A DNA stretch of 60,811 nucleotides, taken from the NCBI GenBank assembly GCA_030524135.1, contig JAUNHA010000009.1, positions 1-60,811 on the forward strand, given 5' to 3'. Numbering within the stretch: the stretch's first letter is position 1; every line of letters begins with the position of its first letter. Source of the DNA: Eubacteriales bacterium (GTDB lineage Bacteria; Bacillota; Clostridia; Lachnospirales; Lachnospiraceae). This document shows positions 27,431-60,811 of the stretch, piece by piece. The notes beneath the pieces are model-generated. The model was not told the origin of the DNA and did not search any database. It was given only the letters and a program-made list of their open reading frames with translations. A program made the translations under genes and the position numbers.

Positions 27431-27443
27431 GGAGGGGGATACA

Positions 27444-30451: not shown

Positions 30452-30476
30452 TATTTCCCCGGGAGAGGACTGAAAG

Positions 30477-31084: not shown

Positions 31085-31122
31085 TTATCAATTTAATACG
31101 ATTGATTTTCGTCAAACAACAC

Positions 31123-31150
31123 AAACTTATGCACTACGCATAAGTTTTTT
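31123..31150 (+). terminator. Perfect hairpin with T-tract in the leader of transporter 2
   Basis: AAACTTATGC (31123-31132) and GCATAAGTTT (31138-31147) pair perfectly over a 5-base loop, with the right arm running into TTTTTT. It may end transcripts from the upstream membrane-protein gene or attenuate the promoter at 31056. Confidence 0.75.
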
Positions 31151-31281
31151 CTATATTTCTATTATTCTCTATAATATTTTCCGAAGAATATACAGGTTCA
31201 CTGGTAATCGCTGATAAAATAAAATAGTAAGCTTTTGGTTATAAGAACTCTGTTATTTTGAAAATAAGAAAAGGAGAAAGT

Positions 31282-32907: not shown

Positions 32908-32912
32908 GAGTG

Positions 32913-32941
32913 AGCCGCCTCACGATGTGAGGCGGCTTTTA
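32913..32941 (+). terminator. Terminator between receptor and permease genes of system 2
   Basis: AGCCGCCTCAC and GTGAGGCGGCT form a perfect 11-bp stem with a 3-base loop followed by TTTTAT. The permease genes downstream therefore depend on read-through or on a promoter of their own. Confidence 0.9.
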
Positions 32942-32995
32942 TAAACACTATTCTCGCTGTCTGAAAGCAGGCGAACAGTGTTTCGGAGGAGCAAA

Positions 32996-34863: not shown

Positions 34864-34882
34864 GACAGGAACGGAGAAAAAA

Positions 34883-39620: not shown

Positions 39621-39745
39621 ATATTTAAATTTCCTTACAAATATATTAAAATGCGATTGTAATAGTATGGCAAAGTGCACGAAGCGCATCGGGGTGAGGA
39701 AAAAACTTGTATTCAATGTGCACACAATGTATTTGGAGGGGTTAT

Positions 39746-45700: not shown

Positions 45701-46306
45701 GAGACGCTCAAGGAAGAGGATTATACGGAAGAAAGCTGGCAGACGCTGATGGATGCGCTGACGGATGCGGAAGCGGTTGTTGAAGATGAGAACGCAACGC
45801 AGAAGGAAGTGAATAATGCGCTCAGCAGTCTTGCAAAGGCCCTCAGCGGACTTAAGAAAAATCCGGAAGAGGAAAAGCCAGGCAAACCGCACAGCAGCGG
45901 CGGAAGCTCCGGCGGCGGATCGAGCACGATGAGAAGAGCAGTACCTGAGTATTACACCAGCGGAAACTGGAGTGAAGGTGAAACAGGCTGGACTTTCCGC
46001 CTGACAGATGGTACGGCAGCGGTTTCCAGATGGATCTATACGAACTGGAACCGCGAGTACGGCTGGTATTTCTTCGACGAGAACGGGCTGATGAAGACCG
46101 GATGGATCGAGCTTGACGGAGAGACCTATTATCTCAATCCAGAGAGCGAGGGCATCCGCGGCAGAATGATAACCGGATGGAAGCAGATCGAAGGCAAGTG
46201 GTATTACTTCAGCGATGTTTCTGACGGAAAGCGCGGAAGAATGCTGAAAGGCACAGAGACCCCGGACGGATATCAGGTAGGTGCAGACGGAGTCTGGGTT
46301 CAGTAA
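39746..46306 (+). CDS. Giant secreted multidomain GH2 beta-galactosidase with cell-wall-binding repeats
   Basis: A 2186-residue exported enzyme. Signal peptide 1-30 (ends SGTAFGAP). GH2 sugar-binding domain about 65-200, Ig-like domain about 216-332, TIM barrel about 332-672 with acid/base Glu477 (WSLGNEI) and nucleophile Glu613 (GEFVWTG), then DUF4982-like and Ig-like domains to about 1070. Discoidin (F5/8C)-type modules at about 1075-1240 and 1342-1485 flank a beta-sandwich with GLSRLVVNGTEVSS. After further Ig-like modules come an InlB-type repeat (about 1904-1965), a FIVAR helical domain (about 1967-2042), a Ser/Gly linker and aromatic cell-wall-binding repeats (WYYF, YYLN) to the end. 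No LPXTG is present. The start at 39746 follows GGAGGGG. It resembles BgaA-type enzymes that trim host or dietary glycans. Confidence 0.92.
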   Translation: MKRYPRRAAAAFLSFAMGMSSLSGTAFGAPMMMSIGRSSGDSDTQMVSEKERVYVSRYDGSERSQDFNDNWRFYLGDAGSAAGGTSFDDSGWDSVTLPHDYSIEQEYSKNMEAESAYLPGGTGWYRKTFTVPQSAAGMQTRIDFDGVYMNATVYINGREVGSHPYGYSPFSFDLTQYLNYGGENVIAVKVDHKTPSSRWYSGSGIYRDVKLTMTPMVHEALHGTRITTPDIEQGNGTVQVKTEIVNDSGNTQEATVTYKIYKKGDSEKTAVASGTAGAVTLSAGASETVTAELSVDAPELWNIDDPNLYVLETSVTTSSGSDVSEADFGFRYFKFDSSEGFFLNGEPVKLKGVCMHHDQGSLGSEAWTRAIERQVEILKQMGCNAIRVTHNPAAQALIDICNEKGMLVIEEMFDGWTDAKNGNSHDYSEWFSEEIGASNAILGKESGSMTWAEFDLKAVIARDYNAPSIISWSLGNEIIEGTSSGGAGYPEQAKKLITWAQEIDTTRPITTGDNKIKSGNSYMWSVANALHESGGIVGFNYANIDKYDTYHSTYPDYKFYGSETASSINSRGVYNTSNYSQELTSYDESAVSWGHVASQAWFDTIRRDFLAGEFVWTGFDYLGEPTTWNGTGAGVVGTWPSPKNSFFGIIDTAGFPKDSYYLYQSLWNDDVNTLHILPAWENEIVKKDSSGNVNVVVYSDAPTVELFFTPAGSEERQSLGSKTMTTLNSQADSGKTSHYTYQMYLENGSGSDNHKNLYRTWSVPYADGTLTAVATDENGNEITDTDGRSQVTTFGEPAQLAISADREAIDADGKDLVYVTVDVLDENGEPVADAENRVTFSVEGNGKLLSVDNGRSQDHDSYQADNRRAFSGKVLAIVQSTDEAGSFTVTASADGLASASVDVDTEAVEKAPETEQQITSYEISKNYYVKVGNAPELPDTLTVYYSDGESAEREVTWESVNDSLYEQEGSFLIKGTVEDTAVSVSINMMDNIAAVLNYSTTVRKGEAPILPQSRQIVSEDGEVLNISLPVEWEEKDASEFAEEGIVTVNGTVTAFGEPVAVTASVRVQEEENTITDNVATKAKVSQNIPKEYQSDTLSAINDGSTASTESQDSNYNNLSRWSNWNWTYKGNQDTDPAQLTFTYDTQEVLGQAKIYFVENGADLRLPDAGQTKWYISNDMETWTELATEETIADATTSQYVTCYTYDFAPVQATYLRIEIHNSTTADVASGKKPTTGITEVELYRSEGKFVAKSDTGLSRLVVNGTEVSSSALNEGSYNTPMAVIEEIEAEGKNNAAVTILPEKDGVVRILTEAEDHSERDTFLINLGAESELGADDASMDYPLDKLTVSASSEETVGEQAGMARAIDGDTSTFWHTKWKDIASDYVDELWLQVELEDDDTTLDAVRYLPRQTSHNGRVNGYEVSVSDDGETWEIVATGNWASDTQWVLAEFDTPVKAKFVKLHATSTYGDTANKFMSAAEFRVRTGRETTELTEETATVTLDQDIYELGEDGAAVKPQVTVELKDGTKLRYGIDYTLSYENNDEPGIATVTVKGIVNYSGKITVEYKIISDKTQEITVEGGTITKIDGEAAEGESTASVESGRELTVTAEAAEGRVFDHWRAVPANLLTEAQTTEEEVSFIVPQSRVRLVAVTRGEDEEKLQEEAYSTASPADWFAYADEAEMAELLEAALDDDDRFALSKGGTVSLTTQISRTATAPSKQKVFANYIANAATPSDAKRENSDADDELTATPSAAARLRRAARTASNSEAERETETEGINYKSLMSAAPAPMTAVKEELGIAEDKELAKQIKLAFWVSTETEKTTKYSGNTKTVNLTDKNLPTYTVTMELPEKNRDMEHYGVYAYMVEEEDITISTVACEVEGDLLKFEASPEGLYAVTYTQCYDVIFEDWDGTVISKQRVPYGMAAEAPEDPVREGYVFTGWNKDFDEITANLTVRAQYEKAEEEKTADKTKLQSKIREVTTKLETLKEEDYTEESWQTLMDALTDAEAVVEDENATQKEVNNALSSLAKALSGLKKNPEEEKPGKPHSSGGSSGGGSSTMRRAVPEYYTSGNWSEGETGWTFRLTDGTAAVSRWIYTNWNREYGWYFFDENGLMKTGWIELDGETYYLNPESEGIRGRMITGWKQIEGKWYYFSDVSDGKRGRMLKGTETPDGYQVGADGVWVQ

Positions 46307-46463: not shown

Positions 46464-46572
46464 TGCCGCAATCGAAAGGCTTCGCATTATTCTGCTATAT
46501 CTGTTATAATGGAGCCATCAAAAACTCAATCCGTAAAACAAGATCAGGCGATAATTGATGGGAAGATATACA

Positions 46573-47601
46573 ATGGCTGAAAAGAAAAATAACAAACTGC
46601 AAATCCGAAATAGCACGGTGGATTTTCTTGTATTTACAAAAGACGCTCATGAGGACAGTATTGAAGTCCGTGTGCAGGATCACGATGTATGGCTGACACA
46701 AAAGGCAATCGGTCAGCTTTTTGATGTGGACAGAAGCGTTGTTACAAAGCACCTTAAAAATATATACGAAAGCGGCGAATTGTCAGAAGATTCAACTTGT
46801 GCAAATTTTGCACAAGTTGCGGATAACGGAAAAACCTATCGATACAAATTCTATTCGTTGTCTACTATTATCGCCGTCGGTTACCGCGTCAACTCTGGAA
46901 GGGCAACACAATTCCGGCAATGGGCAACAAAGGTGTTGGATACCTTTGTTAAGCAGGGATATGTTTTAGATAAAAGCAGGCTTATCAATGGTCAGATCTT
47001 CGACGAGGATTATTTTGACCATCTGATTTACGAAATACAGGAAATTCGGGCTAGTGAGCGGCGCTTTTACCAGAAAATCACGGACATTTATGCCACTGCT
47101 GTAGATTACTCTGTTGACAGCCAGATTACGAAAGATTTTTTTGCGACGGTACAGAATAAGATGCATTATGCCGTTCACGGAAATACCGCAGCTGAGGTTA
47201 TTGTCGCAAGGGCAGACCACACAAAGGAACATATGGGATTGACTTCATGGCGCAACGCTCCAAATGGAAAGATTGTGAAAGCCGATGTTTCTATCGCAAA
47301 AAACTACTTGTCCGTTGATGAGATGCAGGAACTAAACGAGATTGTTACGATGTATCTGGACTATGCTACAAGGCAGGCAAGACGGCATATTCCCATGACA
47401 ATGGTGGATTGGGCTTCTAAGCTGGATGCGTTTTTGCAATTCAACGATGCGGAAGTTTTGCAGGACAAGGGAAAGGTTACTGCGACAATTGCCAAAGTTT
47501 TTGCAGAAAGTGAATTTGAACAATACCGGCTTATCCAAGACCGATTGTATCAGAGTGATTTTGATCGTTTAGTTGCTGACACACAATTAAGTCAAAAATA
47601 A
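46573..47601 (+). CDS. rhuM: RhuM family protein
   Basis: A 342-residue soluble protein of the RhuM family (first named from a Salmonella pathogenicity island). Family blocks are EVRVQDHDVWLTQKAIGQLF with a helix-turn-helix-like DVDRSVVTKHLKNIYESGEL at about residues 50-70, the CANFAQVADNGKTYRYKFYSL region, and QFRQWATKVLDTFVKQGY. The middle (about 155-260) includes a Fic/KilA-N-associated-looking region with HGNTAAEVI. The function is unknown; homologues often sit in mobile or defence islands. The start at 46573 has GGGAAG upstream. Base composition is more AT-rich than the neighbours, suggesting acquisition. It contains a perfect 27-base palindrome at 46793-46819. Confidence 0.85.
   Translation: MAEKKNNKLQIRNSTVDFLVFTKDAHEDSIEVRVQDHDVWLTQKAIGQLFDVDRSVVTKHLKNIYESGELSEDSTCANFAQVADNGKTYRYKFYSLSTIIAVGYRVNSGRATQFRQWATKVLDTFVKQGYVLDKSRLINGQIFDEDYFDHLIYEIQEIRASERRFYQKITDIYATAVDYSVDSQITKDFFATVQNKMHYAVHGNTAAEVIVARADHTKEHMGLTSWRNAPNGKIVKADVSIAKNYLSVDEMQELNEIVTMYLDYATRQARRHIPMTMVDWASKLDAFLQFNDAEVLQDKGKVTATIAKVFAESEFEQYRLIQDRLYQSDFDRLVADTQLSQK
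46793..46819. repeat. Perfect 27-base palindrome inside rhuM
   Basis: CAACTTGTGCAAA (46793-46805), central T, TTTGCACAAGTTG (46807-46819). The arms are exact complements and lie within the codons for STCANFAQVA. Confidence 0.9.
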
Positions 47602-49078: not shown

Positions 49079-49978
49079 ATGGACGTCAGGTCTCTAAAGT
49101 ATTTTATTGCGGTTGTAGAAGAAAAAAGTTATAGTCGTGCAGCAACCCGACTTTGTATGTCGCAACCACCACTCAGTCGAATGGTAAAGCAATTAGAAGA
49201 AGAGCTGCATACAGAATTATTTAAAAGAAATACCAGACATCTGGAATTAACAGATGCGGGATACCTTTTATATATGCGTGCCCATGATCTGGTAGAACTG
49301 CTGGCACATACAGAAAAAGAAGTTGTAGAACTTGGTAATGGATGCCGAGGTATTGTTAACATTGGAACATTAATGTCTCTGGGAAAAACATTGCTTCCAA
49401 CTTTATTAGCACCATTCTCTAAAGAATATCCGGAGATTAGTTACCATATTGAGGAAGGCAGAACAGTTAATATTGCTGACTGGATTGAAAAAGGTATATG
49501 TGATATAGGCTTTATTCGTTTCCCAATTAATGAAGAGCAATTTTGCTGTAAAGTAATTGGAGAAGAAAAACTTGCCGCAGTTTTCCATAAGGACCATCCT
49601 CTTGCGAGACGTGAAGGAACGAGCGTGTTAATGGAAGAAATTAAGGGTGAACGATTTATTCTCTCTAAAAAAATCGGGAATAGCTTGCAGGAGTATTACC
49701 ATAGACAGAACCATGAAATCCATATTATATGTAGTTGTTCAGATTTTGGACTTACTGCTTCTTATGTAGCAGAGGGTATGGGAACTGCAGTTTGTCCGGC
49801 AACAGAACAGAATGGTGCAGATAATCTGGATGTTGTTTATAAAACGATCGAAGATGCACCGTTTACCTCAACGATGGCGGTGATTTGGCGCAAAGAAAGA
49901 TGTTTGAATGGCGCATCAAAATCTTTTTTAAATTATGTACTGGAGCAACTAGAAGGAAATTTAACGGTTAGAATTTAA
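49079..49978 (+). CDS. LysR family transcriptional regulator
   Basis: A 299-residue regulator. The N-terminal winged helix-turn-helix (DVRSLKYFIAVVEEKSYSRA, AATRLCMSQPPLSRMVKQLE) is followed by an effector-binding domain (about 90-295). The gene is clearly AT-richer than those before it and shares that composition with the catabolic genes that follow. It is therefore probably their activator, responding to the imported compound or a breakdown product. It is co-directional with them but separated by a terminator, so it forms its own unit. The ATG follows GAGGATTGG. Confidence 0.92.
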   Translation: MDVRSLKYFIAVVEEKSYSRAATRLCMSQPPLSRMVKQLEEELHTELFKRNTRHLELTDAGYLLYMRAHDLVELLAHTEKEVVELGNGCRGIVNIGTLMSLGKTLLPTLLAPFSKEYPEISYHIEEGRTVNIADWIEKGICDIGFIRFPINEEQFCCKVIGEEKLAAVFHKDHPLARREGTSVLMEEIKGERFILSKKIGNSLQEYYHRQNHEIHIICSCSDFGLTASYVAEGMGTAVCPATEQNGADNLDVVYKTIEDAPFTSTMAVIWRKERCLNGASKSFLNYVLEQLEGNLTVRI

Positions 49979-50001
49979 ATTGAAAAAAGAGAATTGATTA
50001 A

Positions 50002-50046
50002 AAAGAAGTGATTTATACTTATATTGTATATATTGCTTCTTTTTTA
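50002..50046 (+). terminator. Terminator after the LysR gene
   Basis: AAAGAAG...TATAC pairs with GTATA...CTTCTTT around a TTATATT loop and ends in TTTTTT. The rest of the gap to 50192 is AT-rich leader with an AGGAGGAG ribosome site; no clear promoter was found. Confidence 0.75.
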
Positions 50047-50192
50047 GAATTGGTTATTTATATAAATGCGTGGTATCATCAGATTAAGGAATAAAAATTA
50101 ACAAAAAGAAACAAAGGCATCAAGCGGAGTTTGAGATTGGATTATTAAAATAACATATTAAATAAAGACCGGTCAGGAGGAGAATACGAACA

Positions 50193-51503
50193 ATGATACA
50201 AGAGACCCGGAGAGCAGATGGAATTTATATTACAGATGAAAATGGGAAGAGATATACTACTTTAAATGAGATTGCGAGCTGTCTTGGTTATCAAAATAAG
50301 AAATTTTTAGAAAAATTACATGTTTGTCTGGATAATTGCATGATTGGACATGTACCAGGAGTTGGAAAAGAAAAAAAACGTTTGCTGCAGAGACTTTTAG
50401 ACGAGGCAAATGGTGATTTTAATAAAGCGTATCTCATGGGAATTGGTGGTGAAGCAGTTGATTATGCGGTAAAGATTGCAAGGCGTGCAACAGGAAAAGA
50501 GGAAATAATTTCATTTTGGCATGCTTTGCATGGACGATCTTATGCGGGAGCCTCTTTAAGTGGTGTTGCACTTAGAAAGAGTGGTTTCGGAAATCCGATG
50601 CCAGGTATCATTATGGTTCCATATCCTTCAGAAGAAGCAGAACAATTTGCTGAAACAGAGGGGGTTTTAGGACCATTTGCATTTTTAGAAAAGCAGCTAC
50701 AGTATGCATCTGCAGGAAGTTTGGCAGCAATAATAATTGAACCGATACAAGCGCTTGGCGGAATGGTTAGTCCGTCAAAAGAAGCGATGCAGGATTTACG
50801 AAAATTGTGTGATGAGAAGGGCGCATTATTGATTTTTGATGAAATACAATGCGGATCCGGACGTTGTGGGAGTATGTATAGTTACCAACAATTTGGTGTT
50901 GTACCGGATATCGTGCTTCTTGGAAAGGGATTGTCAAATGGAATGGGTTATGGTGCCATGCTTTTAAATGAACGTGCATCTTGCGGGGTAATAGAAGCAG
51001 CGTTAAAAGGGGGATGCAGTGATAATGAATTTGCATGTGGAGTTACAAATGTTGTTCTTGATATATATCAAGAAGAAAAAGTGTTTGAAAATGTAAAAAA
51101 ACAGGGAAATCTATTTCAAACACAATTGTATCAGGGACTTTCGAAAAATCCCATTGTAAAGCAAATTTCAGGTCGGGGACTTGGAATTGGAATAGGACTA
51201 GAGGCAGGATACGCGGAGATAGTACAGCAGCAGCTTTTTGAGAAAGGAATACTAATTGGTGTTTCGGAAGATTATTTACTTATTCGTCCGCCATATATTA
51301 TTCGAGAAGAAGAGACAATGTATTGTGCAGATATAATCATTCAGACTTTAAATGAAGTATATCAAATCCAAAATGCAGAAACTAAAGAGAAGAAATATGA
51401 TTTAAACCAAAGACGGCCGGTATTAATACCGGAAACAACATATGCGAGCAATGAAATGATGCGGGAAGACATATCAAAAACTCGAAGAAAGGTTACTATA
51501 TGA
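50193..51503 (+). CDS. Class III PLP-dependent aminotransferase
   Basis: A 436-residue enzyme of the ornithine / 4-aminobutyrate aminotransferase class. GGEAVDYAVKIARRATGKEE at about residues 86-105, HALHGRSYAGASLSG, IFDEIQCGSGRCG (PLP Asp in the FDEIQ motif) and the Schiff-base Lys245 in LLGKGLSNGMGYGA are all present. A C-terminal extension of about 45 polar residues follows the usual end (after QTLNEVYQ). Class III enzymes transaminate omega-amino groups of non-alpha amino acids, amines or diamines. As the first gene of the operon it suggests that such an amine is released from the imported substrate. It overlaps the permease gene by 4 bp. Confidence 0.9.
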   Translation: MIQETRRADGIYITDENGKRYTTLNEIASCLGYQNKKFLEKLHVCLDNCMIGHVPGVGKEKKRLLQRLLDEANGDFNKAYLMGIGGEAVDYAVKIARRATGKEEIISFWHALHGRSYAGASLSGVALRKSGFGNPMPGIIMVPYPSEEAEQFAETEGVLGPFAFLEKQLQYASAGSLAAIIIEPIQALGGMVSPSKEAMQDLRKLCDEKGALLIFDEIQCGSGRCGSMYSYQQFGVVPDIVLLGKGLSNGMGYGAMLLNERASCGVIEAALKGGCSDNEFACGVTNVVLDIYQEEKVFENVKKQGNLFQTQLYQGLSKNPIVKQISGRGLGIGIGLEAGYAEIVQQQLFEKGILIGVSEDYLLIRPPYIIREEETMYCADIIIQTLNEVYQIQNAETKEKKYDLNQRRPVLIPETTYASNEMMREDISKTRRKVTI

Positions 51504-52417
51504 AAAAATATCTTTTAAAACGTTTAGTTTTTATTTTCATATCATTGTTTTTGCTAATTACAATAACATTTTTTTTGATGCATGCGGTGCCAGGGAATCC
51601 GTTTTCCCGAGAAGGAAAAACATCTGAGGCAGTCGAAGAAAAGCTTAATGAGCGTTTTCACTTAGATCAGCCGGCGACAGTACAGTATTTATACTATTTG
51701 AAGGGGTTAACAGAATTTGATCTCGGACCTTCAATTAAATTTGAGAATTATGATGTAACAGATTTAATTGGAAAGGGATTTCCTGTTTCGGCAAGATTGG
51801 GATTATTGGCAACAGCAGTGATGGTTATTTTTAGTATTCCAATTGGAATAGCGGCAGCAGTAAATCGGGGAAAAATAAGTGACAAGATATTACTTGCTCT
51901 GACAACGTTTGGCATAGGTGTTCCATCATTTGTAATGGCCTCTCTTTTAATTCGAATTTTTGCAATTGAATTGGAGATTCTCCCGGTATATGGTGTTGAT
52001 GAGTGGAAAGGATATGTTCTTCCGGCTGCAGCGCTTTCGGTGGGAGCAATTGCCAATTTAACAAGAAGAGTGAGAACATCTGTATCTACGGTGCTGTGTA
52101 TGGATTATATCGTCACGGCGCGTGCGAAGGGGGCTGGACGGTTTCGGATTTTATTTATCCATGCACTTAGAAATAGCTTAATTCCTATTGTAACGGTTTT
52201 GGGTCCGACGATTGCAAGCCTGGTGACAGGTACCTTTGTTATTGAAAAGATATTTGCAATTCCCGGGATGGGCAGATATTTTGTAGAGGCAATTAATAAC
52301 AGAGACTATACGATGATTATGGGAATTACTATTTTTTATGCAATTATTTTGAATGGAATGATGCTTGTAGTTGATATTCTGTATTCATTGATTGATCCGC
52401 GAATACGATATGAATAA
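51500..52417 (+). CDS. Peptide ABC transporter permease OppB/DppB type (system 3)
   Basis: A 305-residue permease opening MKKYLLKRLVFIFISLFLLI, with FLMHAVPGNPFSREGKTSE, the EAA loop IVTARAKGAGRFRILFIHALRN and a DILYSLIDPRIRYE ending. It is distinct in sequence from systems 1 and 2 and closer to classical oligopeptide permeases. The ATG overlaps the aminotransferase stop. Confidence 0.93.
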   Translation: MKKYLLKRLVFIFISLFLLITITFFLMHAVPGNPFSREGKTSEAVEEKLNERFHLDQPATVQYLYYLKGLTEFDLGPSIKFENYDVTDLIGKGFPVSARLGLLATAVMVIFSIPIGIAAAVNRGKISDKILLALTTFGIGVPSFVMASLLIRIFAIELEILPVYGVDEWKGYVLPAAALSVGAIANLTRRVRTSVSTVLCMDYIVTARAKGAGRFRILFIHALRNSLIPIVTVLGPTIASLVTGTFVIEKIFAIPGMGRYFVEAINNRDYTMIMGITIFYAIILNGMMLVVDILYSLIDPRIRYE

Positions 52418-52448
52418 TGGCGGTTAAGCAAGGGAAGAGAGGTATGGG

Positions 52449-53612
52449 ATGAATGAATTAAAGTTTCAGAAAGACGATTTTAAAAAATTAGATCTAAAAG
52501 ATCTTTCTGAAAATGAGACTCCGGCTTATGGAGTGAGTATGCGTAAAAGAATTATGCTTAGGTTTTTAAGAAATAAGCTTGCTATGGTCAGTCTTATTGT
52601 AATTATCTTATTACTTACGGCAAGTTTTGTTATTCCTCATTTTTATCCATACGAGTTGAACGATCAAAATTTAAAAATGCGTGATATTGGTCCTGTATTT
52701 AAAGCATATCGTATGTCAGATGGAAGGAAATATCATTTTAGCGTTGATATGAAAGTTTGGTTAATTAAGGATACAGATGGTTTTATGATTCCGATGAACC
52801 AAGTTGCAGAAAATTTGAAAAAAAAGGAAATATATTTTGAATATGGTGATGCAAAAGTAATGCTTAATTACAATAATAAACGGCTAAAACTTACGGATAT
52901 GAATGGACAAAAAGGGGAAGCCATTACAGTATTTAATAAAGAGCATATCTTTGGTACGGATGCCTTAGGAAGAGATTTGTTTATTCGTGTTTTATATGGG
53001 GTTCAGGTTTCTCTGGAGATTGCGGTAATTGCTACACTTGTAAATGTACTGATTGGAGTGAGTTATGGTTGCATTGCCGGTTTTTCTGGAGGAAATATTG
53101 ACAATGTTATGATGCGAGCAGTGGACATCATAGGAAACATCCCGTTGTTATTGTACGTTATTCTGCTTATGGTGGTAATCGGAGCGGGACTTAAGAGCAT
53201 CATTATTGCAATGTCTTCGGTATTCTGGATCGGAATGGCAAGGCTTGTGAGAGGACAGGTATTATCTCTTAAGAATATGGAATATATTCAGGCGGCGAAA
53301 AGTATTGGAACTGGAAATGCCAAAATCATACTGGGACATCTTTTACCTAATATTCTTGATCAAATTATTTTGAGTCTGATTTTAGCGATTCCGAATGCCA
53401 TTTTTACGGAAGCATTTTTAAGCTTTATTGGATTGGGAATACAGGAACCGCTTACGTCACTGGGATCACTTTGTAATGCAGGAATGGATGTACTTGTTAC
53501 CTATCCATATAGAATGTTTTTTCCGGCAGTATTTATCTGCGCGATTATTTTTTGTTTTAATTTTATTGGAGATGGTTTGCGGGATGCAATGGCTGTTAGA
53601 ATGGCTCGATAA
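52449..53612 (+). CDS. Peptide ABC transporter permease OppC type with an extra extracytoplasmic segment (system 3)
   Basis: A 387-residue permease, about 80 residues longer than the OppC proteins of systems 1 and 2. After an N-terminal cytoplasmic segment and TM1 (about 38-58), a stretch from about residue 65 to 165 forms an added polar, aromatic-rich domain (KAYRMSDGRKYHFSVDMKVW, YFEYGDAKVMLNYNNKRLKL) before the standard HIFGTDALGRDLFIRVLYG signature. The EAA loop IQAAKSIGTGNAKIILGHLLPN is normal. The segment would face the outside, where it could contact the receptor or ligand. Confidence 0.9.
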   Translation: MNELKFQKDDFKKLDLKDLSENETPAYGVSMRKRIMLRFLRNKLAMVSLIVIILLLTASFVIPHFYPYELNDQNLKMRDIGPVFKAYRMSDGRKYHFSVDMKVWLIKDTDGFMIPMNQVAENLKKKEIYFEYGDAKVMLNYNNKRLKLTDMNGQKGEAITVFNKEHIFGTDALGRDLFIRVLYGVQVSLEIAVIATLVNVLIGVSYGCIAGFSGGNIDNVMMRAVDIIGNIPLLLYVILLMVVIGAGLKSIIIAMSSVFWIGMARLVRGQVLSLKNMEYIQAAKSIGTGNAKIILGHLLPNILDQIILSLILAIPNAIFTEAFLSFIGLGIQEPLTSLGSLCNAGMDVLVTYPYRMFFPAVFICAIIFCFNFIGDGLRDAMAVRMAR

Positions 53613-53665
53613 TAAAATACTGAAGTAAACGTGCGAGGCAACAGCGTTTTGGTAGGGGGAAATAG

Positions 53666-54685
53666 ATGGATAAATATTTGCTCGAGGTCAAAAATTTAAA
53701 AACTTCTTTTTGGAGAGAAGACAAAAGTGAAATAAAAGCGCTTCGTGGAGTTAGTTTTGCCATTAAACCGGGAGAAATAGTGGGTATAGTAGGAGAATCG
53801 GGATGCGGTAAAAGTGTAACGATGAGAAGCGTTATGGGATTACTTCCATCAAACGGTAAAGTCACAGCAGGAGAAATTTTGTTTAATGGGCAGCAGCTTC
53901 TTACATTATCAGAATCTCAAATGAATAAGATCAGAGGAAATAATATCTCTATGATTTTTCAGGACCCGATGACTTCACTTAATCCGCTCCTGAGTATTGG
54001 ATATCAAATCAAAGAGCAGATTAAGCTCCATAGAAAAGCAGCGAGTAAAGAATTACTGCATGACGAGATAATAGCACTTTTACGGAGAGTTGGTATCCCG
54101 GAACCGGAAATGCGATTAAAACAATATCCATATGAGTTTTCCGGAGGAATGATACAGCGAATTATGATTGCTATGGCGATGTCAAATAATCCTCAGCTTC
54201 TTATCGCGGATGAACCTACAACGGCATTGGATGTAACGGTGCAGGATCAGATATTACAGCTTATGAAAGATATAGCGGAAAAACATGGAAGTTCGATTAT
54301 TTTAATTACACATGATCTGGGTGTGATTGCGCAGGTATGTAAGAAAGTGTTGGTGATGTATGCAGGAGAAATCGTAGAGCAAGGGGAAATTCACGAGATT
54401 TTTAAAAAACCATCACATCCATATACACAAGCGCTGCTGCGTTCGTTGCCTTCATATCAAAGAGATGAGGAAAAACTGTATTCTATTGCCGGTTTCCCTC
54501 CATCATTAGACCGGGAATTACCAGGATGTGGATTTGCGTCTCGCTGTCAGTTTGGAGTGAATTTATGTGCGAGGTGTTGTCCGGAAATGTATTCAGTTTC
54601 TGAAACTCATGCGGTGAAATGCCATAATTATGCTTCATCTGTATCAGGAAAACTGTTTTCACTGAGTGAGGAGGCAGTTGTATGA
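53666..54685 (+). CDS. Peptide ABC transporter ATP-binding protein OppD type (system 3)
   Basis: A 339-residue ATPase with Walker A GESGCGKSVT, signature FSGGMIQRIMIAMAM (Ile replaces the usual Arg or Gln after Met), Walker B LLIADEPTTALD and C-terminal GCGFASRCQFGVNLCARCC. The GGGGGAAATAG site precedes the ATG. It overlaps OppF by 4 bp. Confidence 0.93.
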   Translation: MDKYLLEVKNLKTSFWREDKSEIKALRGVSFAIKPGEIVGIVGESGCGKSVTMRSVMGLLPSNGKVTAGEILFNGQQLLTLSESQMNKIRGNNISMIFQDPMTSLNPLLSIGYQIKEQIKLHRKAASKELLHDEIIALLRRVGIPEPEMRLKQYPYEFSGGMIQRIMIAMAMSNNPQLLIADEPTTALDVTVQDQILQLMKDIAEKHGSSIILITHDLGVIAQVCKKVLVMYAGEIVEQGEIHEIFKKPSHPYTQALLRSLPSYQRDEEKLYSIAGFPPSLDRELPGCGFASRCQFGVNLCARCCPEMYSVSETHAVKCHNYASSVSGKLFSLSEEAVV

Positions 54686-55650
54686 ATAAAAGATTAAAAC
54701 AAGCAGATATTCCTATTCTGGAAACCAAAGATCTTAGAAAATATTTTCAGGTGCGCGGAAAGTATGTAAAAGCAGTAGATGGTATTAACATAGAACTCTA
54801 TAAAGGAGAAACGCTTGGGATTATAGGAGAATCAGGTTGTGGAAAAACAACTCTTGGGAAAACCATTATAGGACTACACAAGAAAACATCTGGAGAAATT
54901 CTTCTTGATGGAATAGAAGCTTGTCAAAAGGAGCCTTCATTTAAGCGTCGTGTTCAGATGATTTTTCAGGACCCCTATTCTTCGCTTGATCCGTCATGGG
55001 ATGTATATAAGATTTTGGAGGAACCTCTGGCAGCGCATTGTATAGGAACAGCAGCAGAACGGAAAGATATCATTGAACATTTTCTTGATAAAATGGGCCT
55101 GAAAGCATCAATGTTAAGAAGATTTCCTCATGAGTTTTCCGGAGGTCAGCGTCAGCGTATTGGTATTGCCAGAGCTTTAATTATGCGCCCTGAAATCGTG
55201 ATTTGTGATGAACCGATTTCGGCATTGGATGTGTCAATACAGGCACAAGTGATAAATCTTTTAAAAGAAATACAAAAGGAAATGAATCTTTCGTATTTGT
55301 TTATTGCGCATGATTTATCAATGGTGAAATATATTTCTGATCGTATTGTGGTTATGTATCTTGGAAATATTGTTGAAATGGCAGATAAAAGCGAATTAGT
55401 AAAGAATATGTGCCATCCATATACAAAAGCGCTATTTGAAGCTGAACCCGTGGCTGATCCGGATCATATTATGGAGCACAAAGGAATTAGTGGTGAAATT
55501 CCAAGCCCGATGAATCCGCCGTCAGGATGTAAATTTTGCACCAGGTGTCCATATGCAAATGAAGGGTGTATGCAGCAACAGCCAGAATTTACAGAGATTC
55601 AAACAGGTCATTGGGTGGCTTGTCACAGATGGAAAGAATTATCAGTATAA
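54682..55650 (+). CDS. Peptide ABC transporter ATP-binding protein OppF type (system 3)
   Basis: A 322-residue ATPase with Walker A GESGCGKTT, signature FSGGQRQRIGIARAL, Walker B IVICDEPISALD and C-terminal GCKFCTRCPYANEGC. It pairs with OppD of the same operon; translation is coupled through an ATGA overlap. Confidence 0.93.
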   Translation: MNKRLKQADIPILETKDLRKYFQVRGKYVKAVDGINIELYKGETLGIIGESGCGKTTLGKTIIGLHKKTSGEILLDGIEACQKEPSFKRRVQMIFQDPYSSLDPSWDVYKILEEPLAAHCIGTAAERKDIIEHFLDKMGLKASMLRRFPHEFSGGQRQRIGIARALIMRPEIVICDEPISALDVSIQAQVINLLKEIQKEMNLSYLFIAHDLSMVKYISDRIVVMYLGNIVEMADKSELVKNMCHPYTKALFEAEPVADPDHIMEHKGISGEIPSPMNPPSGCKFCTRCPYANEGCMQQQPEFTEIQTGHWVACHRWKELSV

Positions 55651-55680
55651 TAATTAATTTTACGAATAGGAGGAAACAGT

Positions 55681-57351
55681 ATGAAAAAGACACTATGGAA
55701 ACAATGCTTACGTATTGGATTGATGGGAATGCTATGCGTTTCACTTGTTGCTTGCGGTGGCGATGAAGATGACGGAGAGATTATTTTGGATGAAGCTGCT
55801 GATACAGCAGAGGCAGAAGAAGGCTCTGAAGCAGGCAGAGATACTTTAAAGTTTATCATGACTGCAGAACCGGATTCCATAGATCCAACTCTTGCAGCGG
55901 ATTCGGCGTCTCCTTATATTATTTCGAACTGCTTTGAAGGGTTGACGGTAATGTTAGAAGATGGTTCAGTCATGCCAGGGACGGCTGAAAGCTGGGAAGT
56001 AAGCGAAGATGGACTGGTATATACATTTCATTTAAGAGAAAATGCGGTCTGGTCAGATGGGAAAGATTTAACATCTGCAGACTTTGTGTATGCTTGGAAA
56101 CGCTTGCTCAGTCCGGAAGTGGCAGCAGATTATGAATGGTTTATGGGTCCGTATGTGCTGAATGGAGACAAGTTTTTTGCTGAAGAGTGTAATTTTGATG
56201 AAGTAGGAATAAAGGCGCCGGATGGAGATACAATTGTTGTAACGTTAGAGCATCCCTGTGATTATTTTCTTGAACTTTGTGCAACACCGGCGTACAGCCC
56301 GGTTCGGGAAGATATCGTAGAAGGAAATCCGTCATGGAGTACAAATCCCGAAACATATATTACGAATGGACCATTTTGCATTTCCCAAATTGCAATTGGT
56401 GAAGGCATAACGCTTGTAAAAAATGACCATTATTGGGATGCAGATAATGTGGCGCTTTCATCAGTGGAATATGATTTTGTCGCAGATGTAACCACCGCAT
56501 TGCAGGCCTATGAAAAAGGTGAAGTTGATGGAATGGACAAAGTTCCGGGTACAGAGTATTCGAGATTAAAACTGGAGGATGATGGATTTCAGGCGAGAGA
56601 TAAGATACAAACGATTTTCCTCAACTATAATGTTACAGATCCGGTACTTTCAGATGTTCGAATCAGAAAAGCTCTTAGTTTAGCCATTGATAGAGATGCA
56701 ATTGTAAATGAAATTAATAATGGAGTAGGTAAACCGGCATACGATCTTGTGGCTCCGGGTATTTCCGTTGATGGTCAGGATTTCAGAGAATATGTGGGTG
56801 AATCAGACTATGCATCTATGACCTACGAAGAGCGGTGTGATGAAGCAAGGAAACTGCTCGCAGAAGCTGGATACCCGGATGGAAATGGATTTCCGGAATT
56901 AGAGTTTCAGGACTATAATAGTAAGCTTCCGACGGCTATAATCAAAATGTGGGAAGATCAGCTTGGTATCTCTACGATTACATTAAATACAGTAGAATGG
57001 AAAGTCCATATTGCTGAAATGAAAAAGCTGGATATTCAAATTGCACGCGGTGGATGGACTGCAGATTTTCTGAGCCCTACAAGTTTTCTTTCTATGTATA
57101 TTGCAAATAGTGGAAATAACTATACTGGCTGGAAGGATTCAGAATATGATGCATTAATTGCGAAAGCTGAAACTGAAAGTGGTACACAGGCAATGGATGA
57201 TTTTGCAATAGCTGAAGAAGTTTTTATGGATGCTCAGCCAATTATACCGCTTTATTATAATGAGTTTACTTTCCTGATGAACAATCATTTAAAAGGGTGG
57301 TATATGACAGCAAATGGGTATCTCTCTTTGAAAGGCGCTTATTTTGAATAA
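55681..57351 (+). CDS. Oligopeptide-binding lipoprotein OppA type (system 3)
   Basis: A 556-residue receptor with lipobox LVAC (Cys25), an acidic linker (about 28-58, rich in Asp/Glu) and an SBP_bac_5 body closer to classical OppA (AEPDSIDPTLAADSASPYII, the DADFVYAWKRL-like SADFVYAWKRLLSP, PEVAADYEWF, VPGTEYSRLKLED). It is not a recent relative of the receptors at 22-33 kb. Unlike those systems it lies after the permease and ATPase genes. A strong AGGAGGAAA site suggests high expression. The 3' end overlaps the region just before the hydrolase gene. Confidence 0.92.
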   Translation: MKKTLWKQCLRIGLMGMLCVSLVACGGDEDDGEIILDEAADTAEAEEGSEAGRDTLKFIMTAEPDSIDPTLAADSASPYIISNCFEGLTVMLEDGSVMPGTAESWEVSEDGLVYTFHLRENAVWSDGKDLTSADFVYAWKRLLSPEVAADYEWFMGPYVLNGDKFFAEECNFDEVGIKAPDGDTIVVTLEHPCDYFLELCATPAYSPVREDIVEGNPSWSTNPETYITNGPFCISQIAIGEGITLVKNDHYWDADNVALSSVEYDFVADVTTALQAYEKGEVDGMDKVPGTEYSRLKLEDDGFQARDKIQTIFLNYNVTDPVLSDVRIRKALSLAIDRDAIVNEINNGVGKPAYDLVAPGISVDGQDFREYVGESDYASMTYEERCDEARKLLAEAGYPDGNGFPELEFQDYNSKLPTAIIKMWEDQLGISTITLNTVEWKVHIAEMKKLDIQIARGGWTADFLSPTSFLSMYIANSGNNYTGWKDSEYDALIAKAETESGTQAMDDFAIAEEVFMDAQPIIPLYYNEFTFLMNNHLKGWYMTANGYLSLKGAYFE

Positions 57352-57364
57352 GTATGGAGTAAAA

Positions 57365-58237
57365 ATGATAAAAAGAATTGAAGATATGGTAATGCTTCCG
57401 GAGATTTTAAAAATCTCCGGAATGTCTTTTCCGGACAATCTGAAGAAAACAGATTTTCCAAACGTAAAATTATTTCAACTACGATATAAAGTTGACGAAT
57501 ATGAGGTTGAAGGTTTAATTGCAGCTCCAACAGATTATATTGAAAAAGAATATCCAGTGCTTATTTTTAATCGCGGAGGAAATCGTGATTTTGGGAGGTT
57601 AAGAGAAGGAGTAATCATACGGTATGCATCGTATGGCTTTATTTGCATGGGATCTAAGTACAGAGGAAATGAAGGAGGAACCGGGAAAGAAGACTTTGGA
57701 GGAGAAGACGTACATGATGTAACAACGTTGATCGATATTGCAGAAAAACTCTCATTTGCAGCCGCTGGAGGTGTGTTTATGATTGGCCATTCCAGAGGTG
57801 GGATGATGACTTGGCGTGCAATTAAATTGTGCGGAGATAGAATTAAAGCCGCAGCTGTGAAAGCGGGGTTATCAGATTGTGTCGATATGTATGAGAGTCG
57901 GACAGAAGATATGAAAGATGATTTTTTTGAGCTTGTAGGAGGTGCACCGCAAGATTATCCGGCAGAGTATGCGCTGCGTAGCGCAGTATGTTTTGCAAAG
58001 CAACTGAAAGTTCCCGTTCTAATTGAGCATGGGACAGAAGATTGGCGGGTGAATTTAAGTCAAAGTGTTCGGATGCATGAACTTTTGGATAGATATGGAA
58101 CGAAAAACAAATTGATTATCTATCAGGGAGCGGACCATTCATTAAAAGGATATCCGGCTGATAAGGATATCATAGAGTGGTTTATTCAATATGGATATCC
58201 TAAAGAATTGCTGAGAAAAATGCCAAAAGAATGTTAA
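57365..58237 (+). CDS. Alpha/beta hydrolase, prolyl oligopeptidase (S9) type catalytic domain
   Basis: A 290-residue cytoplasmic protein with no signal peptide. The nucleophile is Ser143 in GHSRGG; the oxyanion-hole region FNRGGNRDFG lies at about 70-79 and the S9 signature RGNEGGTGKEDFGGEDVHDV at about 101-120. The acid is probably the Asp in EHGTEDWRV and the base the His in GADHSLKGY. It is only the catalytic domain; the beta-propeller that restricts classical prolyl oligopeptidases to small peptides is absent. The start at 57365 follows GGAG, 13 bp after the receptor stop; an upstream reading from 57344 overlaps that gene. It probably hydrolyses an ester or amide of the imported solute. 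Confidence 0.85.
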   Translation: MIKRIEDMVMLPEILKISGMSFPDNLKKTDFPNVKLFQLRYKVDEYEVEGLIAAPTDYIEKEYPVLIFNRGGNRDFGRLREGVIIRYASYGFICMGSKYRGNEGGTGKEDFGGEDVHDVTTLIDIAEKLSFAAAGGVFMIGHSRGGMMTWRAIKLCGDRIKAAAVKAGLSDCVDMYESRTEDMKDDFFELVGGAPQDYPAEYALRSAVCFAKQLKVPVLIEHGTEDWRVNLSQSVRMHELLDRYGTKNKLIIYQGADHSLKGYPADKDIIEWFIQYGYPKELLRKMPKEC

Positions 58238-58257
58238 TTTGAGAGGAGGAAGATAAA

Positions 58258-59001
58258 TTGGGAAAATTTTTAAATGAAATGACGTATGAAGAATGCGAAC
58301 AGGAAATCAATGAAAACACAATTATTGTAATTCCTTCTGCTGGTGGAACGAAAGAACATGGATATCATCTTCCAATGGGGACGGATATGTATGTAACAAA
58401 GTATATGGCACGCTGTGTGACAAAAGCATGTAATGTTATAACGCTTCCGATTGTATCTTATGCATACTATCCTGCATTTATTGAATGGAAGGGAAGCGTT
58501 TCTTTAGGATATGAGACATCGATTCGCGTTATACAAGATATTATCGAAAGCTATGTTCGATTTGGAGTAAAAAAATATCTGATTTTAGATGGCGGAGTAT
58601 CAACACAGGCTCCAATGCGTATTTTGTCAAGTGAGATGTTTAATAAACATCATATTCATGTTGCAATTTCCAGTGTGGCTGCGCTTTCTGCAAAAGGAGA
58701 CGCAGAAGTTTGTGAGCAGAAAAGTGGAGGGCATGGAGACGAGTCTGAAACGTCATGTATGTTATTTTTACACCCAGAACTTGTGCATATGGAAAAAGCT
58801 TTTGAAGAATACCGAAAAACGCTTCCGGGAATGTGTGAAAACGGGCAGCAACTCATTACAATGTGCTCTGCTATGGACACACCGCATGGAATTACTGGAA
58901 ATGCAAAACTCGCGACAGCAGAAAAAGGAAAAATAATTCTTGATTATATGGCGGAAGGACTTATCAGATTTCTAACGGAATTTGAGAAATGGAATGTGTA
59001 A
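58258..59001 (+). CDS. Creatininase family protein with altered metal-ligand positions
   Basis: A 247-residue protein starting at TTG with an AGAGGAGGA site. The fold is recognised from GTKEHGYHLPMGTD (residues 30-43) and GHGDESETSCMLFLHPELV near 161-179. Family members are binuclear metal amidohydrolases opening lactam rings or cleaving formamides. In the consensus EQHGPHLP the first Glu is a metal ligand; here that place is Lys32 and Glu occupies the next position (Glu33). The family NGHGGN motif, whose His is a ligand, reads DGGVST at 111-116. His34 and Asp43 remain. The protein may use a rearranged metal site or have lost activity. It sits between two hydrolase genes. Confidence 0.85.
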   Translation: MGKFLNEMTYEECEQEINENTIIVIPSAGGTKEHGYHLPMGTDMYVTKYMARCVTKACNVITLPIVSYAYYPAFIEWKGSVSLGYETSIRVIQDIIESYVRFGVKKYLILDGGVSTQAPMRILSSEMFNKHHIHVAISSVAALSAKGDAEVCEQKSGGHGDESETSCMLFLHPELVHMEKAFEEYRKTLPGMCENGQQLITMCSAMDTPHGITGNAKLATAEKGKIILDYMAEGLIRFLTEFEKWNV

Positions 59002-59004
59002 ACT

Positions 59005-60072
59005 ATGAATATACAAAAAGAATATGAGAAGGAATTGGAACTGTTTATGAAGGAAAAGCTTGAAAAAATCATAAACATACCAAGTCCGTCAGGGTACACA
59101 AAAGAATTAATCAGATATCTTAAAACGGAAAGCGAGGCATTAGGTTTTCAAACAGAATTAACACGGCGCGGAGCTCTTATTGTAACTCTTTCGGACAAAA
59201 CAAAAAACAAACGATTACTTGCGGCGCATTGTGATACGCTTGGAGCAATGGTGAGAACTGTCATGGAAGACGGTACATTAAAGCTTCTTCAGATTGGCGG
59301 ATATATGCTGGAAAGTGTTGAAGGCGAATATTGTACAATTCATACACGGAAAGGGAAAAAATATACAGGAACCATTTTGACATCAGCCCCATCGGTTCAT
59401 GCTTATCCGGATAGTGCCAGAGAATTAAAACGAACAGATGATGCAATGAGAATTCGATTAGATGAAGATGTTCATTCCAAGGAAGATGTTTTGAAAAAGA
59501 CAGAAATTAGACGAGGGGATTTTATTTCTTTTGAACCGAGATTCCAAGCTTTTGAAAATGGGTATATTAAATCAAGGCATTTAGATAACAAAGCAAGCGT
59601 AGCTGTGTTTATGGCTGTGATGAAAGCAGTAGCAGAAGCCGTGATTAAGCCAAAGATTGGAAGCCAAGTAATGTTTACCAATTATGAAGAGGTTGGTTTT
59701 GGTGCAAGTTATATACCGGACAATATTTATGAAATGATAGCGGTAGATATGGGATCCGTTGGAGATGACTTAGAAGGTGATGAGAAAAAAGTATCTATAG
59801 TAACTAAAGACATGCAAGGACCTTATGATTTTGATCTTGTAACAAAGTTAATAGATTTGGCTGAAAAAGAAGAATTGGATTATGTAGTGGAATGCTATCG
59901 GCGTTACAAATCAGATACAGCAGCCGCAATTGCAGGAGGCAGAAATATTCGCCATGGACTTGTAGGACAAGGTGTTCAAGCCTCGCATCATATGGAGCGC
60001 ACACACATTCATGGAATGATACAAAATTTCAAATTGCTTGCTTCATATATCGAGAGTGATAATGATTTTTAA
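59005..60072 (+). CDS. M42 family metallopeptidase
   Basis: A 355-residue glutamyl-aminopeptidase / deblocking-aminopeptidase type enzyme. Metal ligands and catalytic residues are visible as His75 and Asp77 (AAHCDTLGAMV), Asp194 (RHLDNKASV), Glu228-Glu229 (NYEEVGFG), an Asp in VDMGSVGDD and a His in ASHHMERTH near 328. Members remove N-terminal residues or acyl groups from short peptides and assemble into large tetrahedral shells. It begins 3 bases after the creatininase-like stop and ends the operon. Confidence 0.92.
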   Translation: MNIQKEYEKELELFMKEKLEKIINIPSPSGYTKELIRYLKTESEALGFQTELTRRGALIVTLSDKTKNKRLLAAHCDTLGAMVRTVMEDGTLKLLQIGGYMLESVEGEYCTIHTRKGKKYTGTILTSAPSVHAYPDSARELKRTDDAMRIRLDEDVHSKEDVLKKTEIRRGDFISFEPRFQAFENGYIKSRHLDNKASVAVFMAVMKAVAEAVIKPKIGSQVMFTNYEEVGFGASYIPDNIYEMIAVDMGSVGDDLEGDEKKVSIVTKDMQGPYDFDLVTKLIDLAEKEELDYVVECYRRYKSDTAAAIAGGRNIRHGLVGQGVQASHHMERTHIHGMIQNFKLLASYIESDNDF

Positions 60073-60223
60073 TTAGTTAATCGTTTATATTTTCTTAAGT
60101 ATTTAAAAACATTGGGGCATTTAGCTCTGCTGTTTTTGTTAAATAAACGAACAATTTAAAAATAGAATTGTAAGCATTTTAAAAGATATATAAAGTAATT
60201 GACAGACCCCACGCAGGCTTGGC

Positions 60224-60598
60224 ATGGAAGAGGCGATGCGATATAATACAAGAAAAATCCGGCACGTGGAAGCGATGCTGGAATTTCTAAAAACCTTTGC
60301 ACACTATGAGAGGTTTGAACAGATCAGGGAAGAGCTGATAGAGATAGCAGAAAAAGGAGGGGAAGTCAGGATGTGTAATCTGGTGGATCAGTGGATCGAT
60401 ATGGGCGTGAAACAAGGGCTTGCTGAGGGCATTGCATTGGGGCAGGCGGACGGACGTTACATTTCCCTGCAGAATATTATTAAGAACGGCATTTCAGAAG
60501 CGGAGGGGATTCGGCTTTTGAATTTCTCAAAGGAAGAGACGGAAGGGTATCATAGCTGGCTTTCGGGAGAGGGAGAAAAACAACTGCATACAGTTTAA
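60224..60598 (+). pseudogene. C-terminal fragment of an Rpn / PD-(D/E)XK transposase-type nuclease
   Basis: 124 codons whose second half (MCNLVDQWIDMGVKQGLAEG) matches the C-terminal tail of recombination-promoting nuclease / putative transposase proteins. The N-terminal nuclease domain with its catalytic motif is absent, and an in-frame TGA lies 24 bases upstream of the first ATG (60200-60202). No good ribosome site precedes that ATG. Its composition is less AT-rich than the island before it. It is probably a decayed remnant marking the island edge. Confidence 0.7.
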
Positions 60599-60626
60599 AT
60601 GCATCTAAACTCAATTAATAAATAAG

Positions 60627-60682
60627 AAAAGCCTGTGGATTAATAATGGTTTGTATCATTATTGGTCTGTAGGCCTTTTTGT
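60627..60682 (+). terminator. Long hairpin terminator near the window end
   Basis: AAAAGCCTGTGGATT..AATAATG pairs with CATTATT..GTAGGCCTTTTT with some mismatches. It can act in either direction because A-runs precede it and T-runs follow. Confidence 0.75.
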
Positions 60683-60752
60683 ATTTCCCGGGATTCTTTA
60701 CCTGAAATTTACAGAATGCCGCCACTTTTACCGATTCTTTACAAAACCCCGC

Positions 60753-60780
60753 TTGCGATTTTACATTGTGCCGATATTAT
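60753..60780 (+). promoter_or_regulatory. Candidate promoter reading out of the window
   Basis: TTGCGA, 16 bases, TATTAT. The gene it would serve lies beyond the window. Confidence 0.4.
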
Positions 60781-60811
60781 AAGGACGAACTCAGAAAGAG
60801 ATCATGATAAG

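What the first reader, a model, noticed from the sequence alone, without database searches (positions are those of the whole stretch)
49079..60072. AT-rich island encoding an apparent new uptake-and-dismantling pathway for a peptide- or lactam-like compound
Seen: LysR regulator, then nine packed co-directional genes (class III aminotransferase, OppBCDFA, prolyl-oligopeptidase-type hydrolase, creatininase-family protein, M42 peptidase), with overlaps or gaps mostly under 60 bp and a base composition clearly AT-richer than the preceding 49 kb. Known: each family acts on amide/peptide bonds or amines. Inference: the operon imports one class of compound, cleaves two or three amide/ester bonds, and transaminates the released omega-amine. 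No described operon that I know of has this gene set.
Basis: partly seen in the sequence, partly recalled or inferred. Interest (0 to 1): 0.75.

Follow-up and report, generated by a model that had tools for sequence, protein, structure and literature searches.

The report
Foreign peptide-uptake operon with altered enzymes
A bacterium carries a block of ten apparently foreign genes that probably import small peptides and break them down, and two of the enzymes have key parts of their usual active sites replaced, so what those two do is open.

Summary
Window 49079-60072 carries LysR plus nine packed co-directional genes (class III aminotransferase-fold protein AT3, OppBCDFA, S9-type hydrolase, creatininase-family protein CRE, M42 peptidase) at 38% GC against 50% upstream, with a sharp codon-usage switch at LysR. 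It looks acquired. AT3 had no other match in 397 family genomes (E<=1e-60) or 378 phylum genomes (E<=1e-50). CRE had none in the other 24 genus genomes (E<=1e-20); family relatives are distant (33% at best). No examined locus carries the gene set.

Importer and receptor are of the oligopeptide type, and M42 and S9 keep their catalytic motifs: peptide uptake and trimming is the best reading. "Transaminates the omega-amine" is not supported: AT3 keeps the PLP lysine but lacks most phosphate-site residues and the usual carboxylate arginine. CRE belongs to a clade otherwise found here only in Proteobacteria genomes, including Legionella-type ones. At two columns that bind metal in creatininase, all 8 clade members have Lys and Gly, where all 26 tabulated others have Glu and His. 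This conserved altered site is the most novel result. Substrate unknown; the CRE model is low-confidence exactly at the site.

The parts
49079..49978 (+). LysR-type regulator, first gene of the acquired block
   Evidence: Pfam HTH_1 and LysR_substrate; codon usage r 0.94 to the rest of the island, 0.50 to upstream genes
49992..50055 (+). AU-rich hairpin with a U-rich 3' arm between LysR and AT3, candidate terminator
   Evidence: RNA fold -18.4 kcal/mol, z -3.85, 0 of 200 shuffles as stable; not among the sites of the consensus scan, which asks for 3 G-C pairs
50193..51503 (+). AT3: class III aminotransferase-fold protein with altered cofactor pocket
   Evidence: PF00202 232.7 bits; keeps K245 and D216; deviates in 19 of 57 conserved columns; nearest identity in the alignment of 68 homologues 33%
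51500..52417 (+). OppB permease
   Evidence: PF00528; best NCBIfam Opp3B 328 bits, under its cut-off 480
52449..53612 (+). OppC permease (387 aa)
   Evidence: PF00528 and OppC_N; best NCBIfam Opp3C 321 bits, under its cut-off 450
53666..54685 (+). OppD ATPase
   Evidence: ABC_tran and oligo_HPY
54682..55650 (+). OppF ATPase
   Evidence: ABC_tran and oligo_HPY
55681..57351 (+). OppA receptor, peptide-binding type, lipobox-like N terminus (read by eye)
   Evidence: SBP_bac_5; NCBIfam OppA 288.6 bits against DppA 99.4 and NikA 96.2; best solved relative 8ay0 DppE, 291.5 bits; D462 aligns with D419 of the 1b05 chain
57344..58237 (+). ABH: single-domain S9-type alpha/beta hydrolase
   Evidence: Peptidase_S9 69.3 bits; Ser, Asp and His align with S9 peptidases 8wt1 and 4hxe
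58258..59001 (+). CRE: creatininase-family protein of the Lys/Gly clade
   Evidence: PF02633 155.7 bits; signature and clade
59005..60072 (+). M42 peptidase, nearest to the 2gre 'deblocking aminopeptidase'
   Evidence: PF05343 224.6 bits; 2gre 284.9 bits, next solved relative 62.9 bits; metal-ligand motifs aligned
60224..60598 (+). 124-aa ORF after the island, perhaps a fragment of a mobile-nuclease-like gene (by eye)
   Evidence: GC3 0.51; three paralogues in the same genome at 30-49% identity, none in three other genus genomes; no Pfam hit; codon usage r 0.56 to upstream genes, 0.73 to the island

Best explanation
A horizontally acquired operon with its own LysR gene takes up a small peptide (or peptide conjugate with a free amino end) through a complete Opp importer and takes it apart in the cytoplasm. 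An M42 aminopeptidase of the 2gre branch and an S9-type hydrolase cut it. Two relatives of known folds with rebuilt active sites then handle an unusual residue: CRE, of a creatininase-family clade that has replaced two of the family's metal ligands, and AT3, an aminotransferase-fold protein that keeps the PLP lysine but not the usual phosphate and carboxylate residues. Shown by sequence: gene order, foreign composition, peptide-type transporter, retained M42 and S9 catalytic motifs, altered CRE and AT3 sites. Inferred: co-transcription, LysR control, substrate class, order of steps, and that CRE and AT3 are active. If AT3 is active, a lyase- or racemase-type reaction is more likely than 2-oxoglutarate transamination.
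For: Gene packing. Families. GC and codon switch. OppA nearest to peptide receptors. M42 284.9 bits to 2gre with metal motifs aligned. S9 triad aligned. CRE: K in 8 of 8 against E in 26 of 26 at the Glu34 column, G in 8 of 8 against H in 26 of 26 at His120, T in 8 of 8 against N in 26 of 26 at Asn123, while the His36, Asp45 and HxxxxETS columns are kept. Clade support 99/98 (32 rows) and 97/91, 94% of 200 bootstrap trees, with the signature stretches removed (34 rows). AT3: 19 of 57 conserved columns deviate. Contig 42 of the same genome carries OppABCDF-like genes, a CapA-like gene (by eye) and two M42 genes in a row, so an Opp importer beside an M42 of this kind recurs.
Against: No second copy of the gene set was found, so association of these genes by selection is untested. 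CRE clade members elsewhere sit in other contexts, in three Legionella-type loci beside LysE- and LysR-like genes. Both trees warn of long branches, CRE among them. AT3 may be inactive; 13 of 68 homologues also lack the carboxylate Arg and 5 of 68 also have Leu at the aromatic position. There is no substrate evidence and transcription was not measured.
Confidence: 0.55

Rival explanations
1. An ordinary foreign peptide-scavenging operon: Opp, M42 and S9 hydrolase do the work, while AT3 and CRE are inactive or loosely related passengers (pseudoenzymes).
For: AT3 lacks most PLP-phosphate residues and is 4th of 69 in deviation; of the three above it, L184 and L186 are cut by contig ends. CRE has two metal-ligand columns changed. 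Opp beside M42 recurs in the same genome.
Against: All ten ORFs are open and uniform in composition. The CRE signature is shared by the window and Pseudomonadota genomes, with 41 invariant columns in six sequences, which decay would not preserve; this shows constraint, not catalysis. AT3 keeps K245, D216 and E217.
Confidence: 0.25
2. A self-defence or disarming operon: it imports a specific peptide antibiotic or signal and destroys it.
For: Foreign composition, a LysR gene, an importer with several hydrolases.
Against: No export, immunity or resistance-type family among the ten Pfam results.
Confidence: 0.1
3. A chimeric contig: the AT-rich block belongs to another organism and was joined to this genome by assembly or binning error.
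For: A sharp codon and GC switch at about 49.05 kb; CRE absent from the 24 other genus genomes; no junction found in relatives; 60073-60811 has no DNA match in the 24 other genus genomes, and the last ORF's codon usage is nearer the island (0.73) than the upstream genes (0.56).
Against: After a 128-bp stretch at 0.21 GC the contig rises to 0.434 (60201-60811), and its last ORF has GC3 0.51 and three paralogues in the same genome. LysR follows MatE by 41 bp.
Confidence: 0.1
4. About the CRE part only: the clade is still a two-metal enzyme with shifted ligands, Glu33, His37, Asp161 or Glu162 replacing Glu34 and His120.
For: One residue is inserted before the motif, and Glu33, His37, Asp161 and Glu162 are kept in 8 of 8.
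Against: Gly at the His120 column supplies no side chain, and the profile alignment to solved creatininases places Lys on Glu34 and Gly on His120. The AlphaFold2 model cannot decide: residues 33-36 have pLDDT under 50.
Confidence: 0.3

Closest known systems
OppABCDF oligopeptide importers (8ay0 DppE, 8are OppA, 1b05 OppA; organisms recalled as B. subtilis and Salmonella)
   Same: All five subunits, receptor of the peptide class, aspartate aligned with OppA Asp419
   Different: No listed NCBIfam model reached its cut-off (best 25 shown for OppD and OppF); embedded with AT3, S9, CRE and M42
Creatininase family PF02633 (creatininase, MftE, IolN)
   Same: Full-length Pfam match 155.7 bits; His36, Asp45 and HxxxxETS columns kept
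   Different: Glu34 to Lys, His120 to Gly, Asn123 to Thr; separate clade; below the TIGR04448, NF041098 and TIGR03964 cut-offs
Class III aminotransferases (ArgD, GABA-AT) and the related lyase PbfA
   Same: PLP lysine, ring Asp and full-length Pfam match
   Different: Phosphate loop, phosphate Thr, stacking aromatic and carboxylate Arg replaced (roles recalled); nearest identity 33% in the alignment of 68
M42 peptidases of the TIGR03106 / 2gre branch
   Same: 289.6 and 284.9 bits; metal-ligand motifs aligned
   Different: Below the TIGR03106 cut-off 397.75; no NAGGN-type synthesis family among the ten genes
Own-genome contig 42 locus: OppABCDF, CapA-like, two M42
   Same: Importer beside M42 genes 37-38% identical to the window's
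   Different: GC 0.52, like the rest of the genome; no AT3, S9 or CRE match in the 20-kb stretch

Membership tests
Opp-type peptide ABC importer | SBP_bac_5 receptor, two permeases, two ATPases with oligo_HPY | tested here: met
Opp-type peptide ABC importer | receptor nearest to peptide rather than nickel, opine or glutathione receptors | tested here: met
   OppA 288.6 against NikA 96.2, CntA 64.4, GsiB 76.2 bits, all below their own cut-offs; peptide-binding proteins lead the solved structures
Opp-type peptide ABC importer | transport of peptides | not testable with these tools
   needs binding or uptake assay
Creatininase family, canonical metal-dependent amidohydrolase | PF02633 match over the full length | tested here: met
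   155.7 bits, cut-off 31.3
Creatininase family, canonical metal-dependent amidohydrolase | Glu34 and His120 metal ligands (roles recalled) | tested here: not met
   Lys and Gly in 8 of 8 clade members; Glu and His in 26 of 26 others, and in the two further fetched rows by eye (L014, L220); columns anchored on solved creatininases
Creatininase family, canonical metal-dependent amidohydrolase | His36 and Asp45 ligands (roles recalled) | tested here: met
   8 of 8
Creatininase family, canonical metal-dependent amidohydrolase | bound metal and amidohydrolase activity | not testable with these tools
   model too uncertain at residues 33-36; needs metal analysis and assay
Class III aminotransferase (2-oxoglutarate-dependent) | PLP lysine and ring-nitrogen Asp | tested here: met
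   K245, D216; both 68 of 68 in homologues
Class III aminotransferase (2-oxoglutarate-dependent) | phosphate-binding loop and phosphate Thr (roles recalled) | tested here: not met
   GIGGE where most have NSG[TSA]E; G274 where 67 of 68 have Thr
Class III aminotransferase (2-oxoglutarate-dependent) | carboxylate-binding Arg three residues before PP (role recalled) | tested here: not met
   L363; Arg in 54 of 68, Ala or Thr in 13
M42 aminopeptidase | metal-ligand and catalytic-Glu motifs (recalled) | tested here: met
   aligned to 2gre
TIGR03106 NAGGN-system M42 | score above cut-off and NAGGN genes nearby | tested here: not met
   289.6 under 397.75; no such family among the ten genes

The most novel reading that the evidence does not exclude
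CRE represents an undescribed active clade of creatininase-fold enzymes in which a lysine and a Gly-x-Ser-Thr loop stand in for one metal of the two-metal site. Together with AT3, a PLP enzyme of a new class III lineage, it breaks down an unusual residue of imported peptides: a new catabolic pathway that moves between bacteria.
Probability: 0.3. Interest if true: 0.65.

Novelty: new variant of a known kind. Interest (0 to 1): 0.45.

Why it matters
Creatininase-family proteins are annotated by name as metal-dependent amidohydrolases. A clade shared by the window and Pseudomonadota genomes that has replaced two ligands suggests that such annotation is unsafe, and it offers a testable case of metal-site replacement in an enzyme fold. 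If the operon is active it points to a peptide-derived nutrient whose breakdown needs chemistry that is not yet assigned.

Tried and rejected
Lactam or creatinine pathway: rejected as the leading reading, since the receptor is of the peptide class and CRE lacks two canonical ligands. NAGGN osmolyte system: rejected, no partner genes and score under cut-off. Mobile-element boundaries: no tRNA in the window and no repeat pair of 18 bases or more at the two ends (shorter ones not excluded). Phage or plasmid origin by DNA match: none at megablast level. Empty site in the genus: not found; the RhuM gene beside MatE sits in other contexts in the relatives fetched. Donor: not identified. First genome-contig scan with CRE alone: nothing. 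Three viral-contig scans: two with nothing, one with two distant aminotransferases. CRE model: AlphaFold2 from the six-row alignment, mean pLDDT 71.9, pTM 0.73, residues 33-36 and three other stretches under 50; the fold search never ran, so the fold rests on sequence.

Counts and what was dropped. The CRE column table has 34 rows: 8 clade members and 26 others. Two further fetched rows, L014 and L220, were not returned by the ORF picker; by eye both are canonical, with Glu and NGHxxN. The scan kept the best 80 of 147 relatives; 82 loci were examined for neighbours, many cut by contig ends. AT3 columns use 68 of the 77 loci with an aminotransferase match. Five of the seven other clade members were found with exact peptide patterns taken from CRE, which favours that motif; the other two came from a profile search (3 of 53 genomes, the seed included). 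Column 122 is not diagnostic. Recalled, from no call: roles of the creatininase ligands, OppA Asp419, the phosphate Thr, aromatic and Arg of class III enzymes, M42 metal motifs, and organisms of PDB chains; the letters at those columns come.

Papers: search listings only for (empty); passages of PMC10885120; PMC5354501 not held. Searches showed no description of this gene set or of the CRE clade; most subscription papers are not in that library.
Full report
What is there. The block is AT-rich (0.381 against 0.502 for the first 49 kb), uniform in codon use and unlike 15 upstream genes, with the switch falling between MatE and LysR. Among 133 2-kb pieces from 18 other stretches of the same genome only two fall below 0.411 GC. 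The window is a whole contig of a 2.23-Mb, 89-contig, 92%-complete genome.

Foreign and rare. In the genus, 1 of 25 genomes has CRE at E up to 1e-20, the window's own. In the family, 15 of 397 genomes, the own included, have a creatininase-family match at that level, the best other at 33% identity, and 1 of 397 has AT3 at E up to 1e-60; in the phylum 1 of 378 at 1e-50; own only in both. Weaker aminotransferase matches exist everywhere and were cut off by those limits. The M42 gene is common: 59 of 391 genomes of the class at 1e-40, best other 51%. Around 17 creatininase loci and 20 M42 loci (two of them from the own genome) no other member of the AT3/ABH/CRE/M42 set matched at E up to 1e-8; a full Opp set lay beside one of the 17 and one of the 20, the latter in the own genome. 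Among 82 further loci (80, two), none carries AT3 together with CRE, ABH or M42; two have an OppA-like gene near an aminotransferase (L125, L176). These searches used samples or exact eight-residue patterns, and many loci are short, so an unsampled cluster remains possible. No similar DNA is in the plasmid or phage collections at megablast level.

Transport. OppA scores 288.6 bits against the OppA model and under 100 against the dipeptide, nickel and opine models, below every listed model's own cut-off. The best solved relatives are 8ay0 (DppE), 8are (OppA) and 1b05 (OppA), and Asp462 aligns with Asp419 of the last, which holds the peptide amino end (recalled). A small peptide is therefore the best guess for the cargo.

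Hydrolases. The M42 protein falls clearly with 2gre, labelled deblocking aminopeptidase (284.9 bits; next 62.9), and the metal motifs align. The S9-type hydrolase aligns Ser, Asp and His with S9 peptidases; at 297 aa it has no room for their propeller domain.

The creatininase-family protein. Aligned to solved creatininases, whose letters at 34, 36, 45, 120 and 122 are E, H, D, H and E (1j2t chain), the window protein and its relatives have K at 34, G at 120 and S at 122, and keep H36 and D45. Across 34 sequences the pattern is clean: K, G and T in 8 of 8 clade members against E, H and N in 26 of 26 others at columns 34, 120 and 123; two more fetched rows are canonical by eye. Position 122 is not diagnostic: the other 26 have G, S, A or P there. 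The clade is one side of a branch with support 99/98 (six members then known) and 97/91, 94% of 200 bootstrap trees, with the signature stretches removed (eight members). Both trees flag long branches, CRE among them, so the depth and the root are uncertain. In three such loci the gene follows a LysR-like gene divergent from a LysE-like exporter (Pfam was run on L119 only). Conservation over this distance says that the altered site is kept by selection, not that it catalyses. The AlphaFold2 model (mean pLDDT 71.9, pTM 0.73) is under 50 at residues 33-36, so the geometry of the site is untested.

The aminotransferase-fold protein. Against 68 homologues it keeps the PLP lysine, the ring Asp and the following Glu but deviates in 19 of 57 columns conserved at 80% or more: the phosphate loop, NSG[TSA]E in most, is GIGGE; the phosphate Thr (67 of 68) is Gly274; and Pro252 (65 of 68) is Gly. 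Two less conserved positions also differ: the aromatic before HG (62 of 68) is Leu112, as in 5 homologues, and the carboxylate Arg (54 of 68) is Leu363, where 13 homologues have Ala or Thr. Three homologues that look lyase-like by eye (L111, L135, L142) also lack the Arg and the NSG loop; the NCBIfam model of the lyase PbfA scores AT3 at 191 under its cut-off 525, and ArgD at 216.6 under 410. A transaminase reaction is therefore not supported; a lyase or racemase reaction, or loss of activity, fits better.

Mechanism. The best reading is import of a peptide, trimming by M42 and the S9 enzyme, and handling of an unusual residue by AT3 and CRE, probably under the LysR protein. Import class and hydrolase competence rest on sequence; the order of steps, the substrate, the control and the activity of CRE and AT3 are inference. 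An Opp locus on contig 42 of the same genome, with a CapA-like gene (by eye) and two M42 genes, shows that this importer type sits beside this kind of M42 more than once.

Verdict. The uptake-and-dismantling idea is supported in outline, its transamination step is not, and its conservation test failed within the sampling. The main new finding is the altered, conserved active site of the CRE clade.

Noticed in passing
L084 (contig 42 of the same genome) 9167-18868, minus strand: An operon-like row of OppABCDF-like genes, a CapA-like gene (by eye) and two M42 peptidase genes.
   Followed up: partly
window 22130-36927: Two more Opp/Dpp-type permease and ATPase sets (by similarity) with receptor-like lipoprotein ORFs upstream of the island.
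   Followed up: no
window 46555-47601: RhuM-family gene, GC 0.419, 82-93% identical at protein level in four other genus genomes (one match partial) and in other contexts there.
   Followed up: partly
window 39707-46306: Very large (2199 aa) secreted glycosidase-like protein, read from the ORF only.
   Followed up: no
L119, L236, L237: Creatininase-clade gene next to a LysR-like gene divergent from a LysE-like exporter in three Legionella-type genomes, hinting at a link to amino-acid export.
   Followed up: partly
L152 1914-6136: Creatininase-clade gene after genes with matches to glutamate-cysteine ligase family 2, a cyclic-nucleotide-binding domain and a class II glutamine amidotransferase.
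   Followed up: no
window 51351-51503: C-terminal extension of about 50 residues on AT3 beyond the Pfam domain, which ends at residue 386; no assigned role.
   Followed up: no
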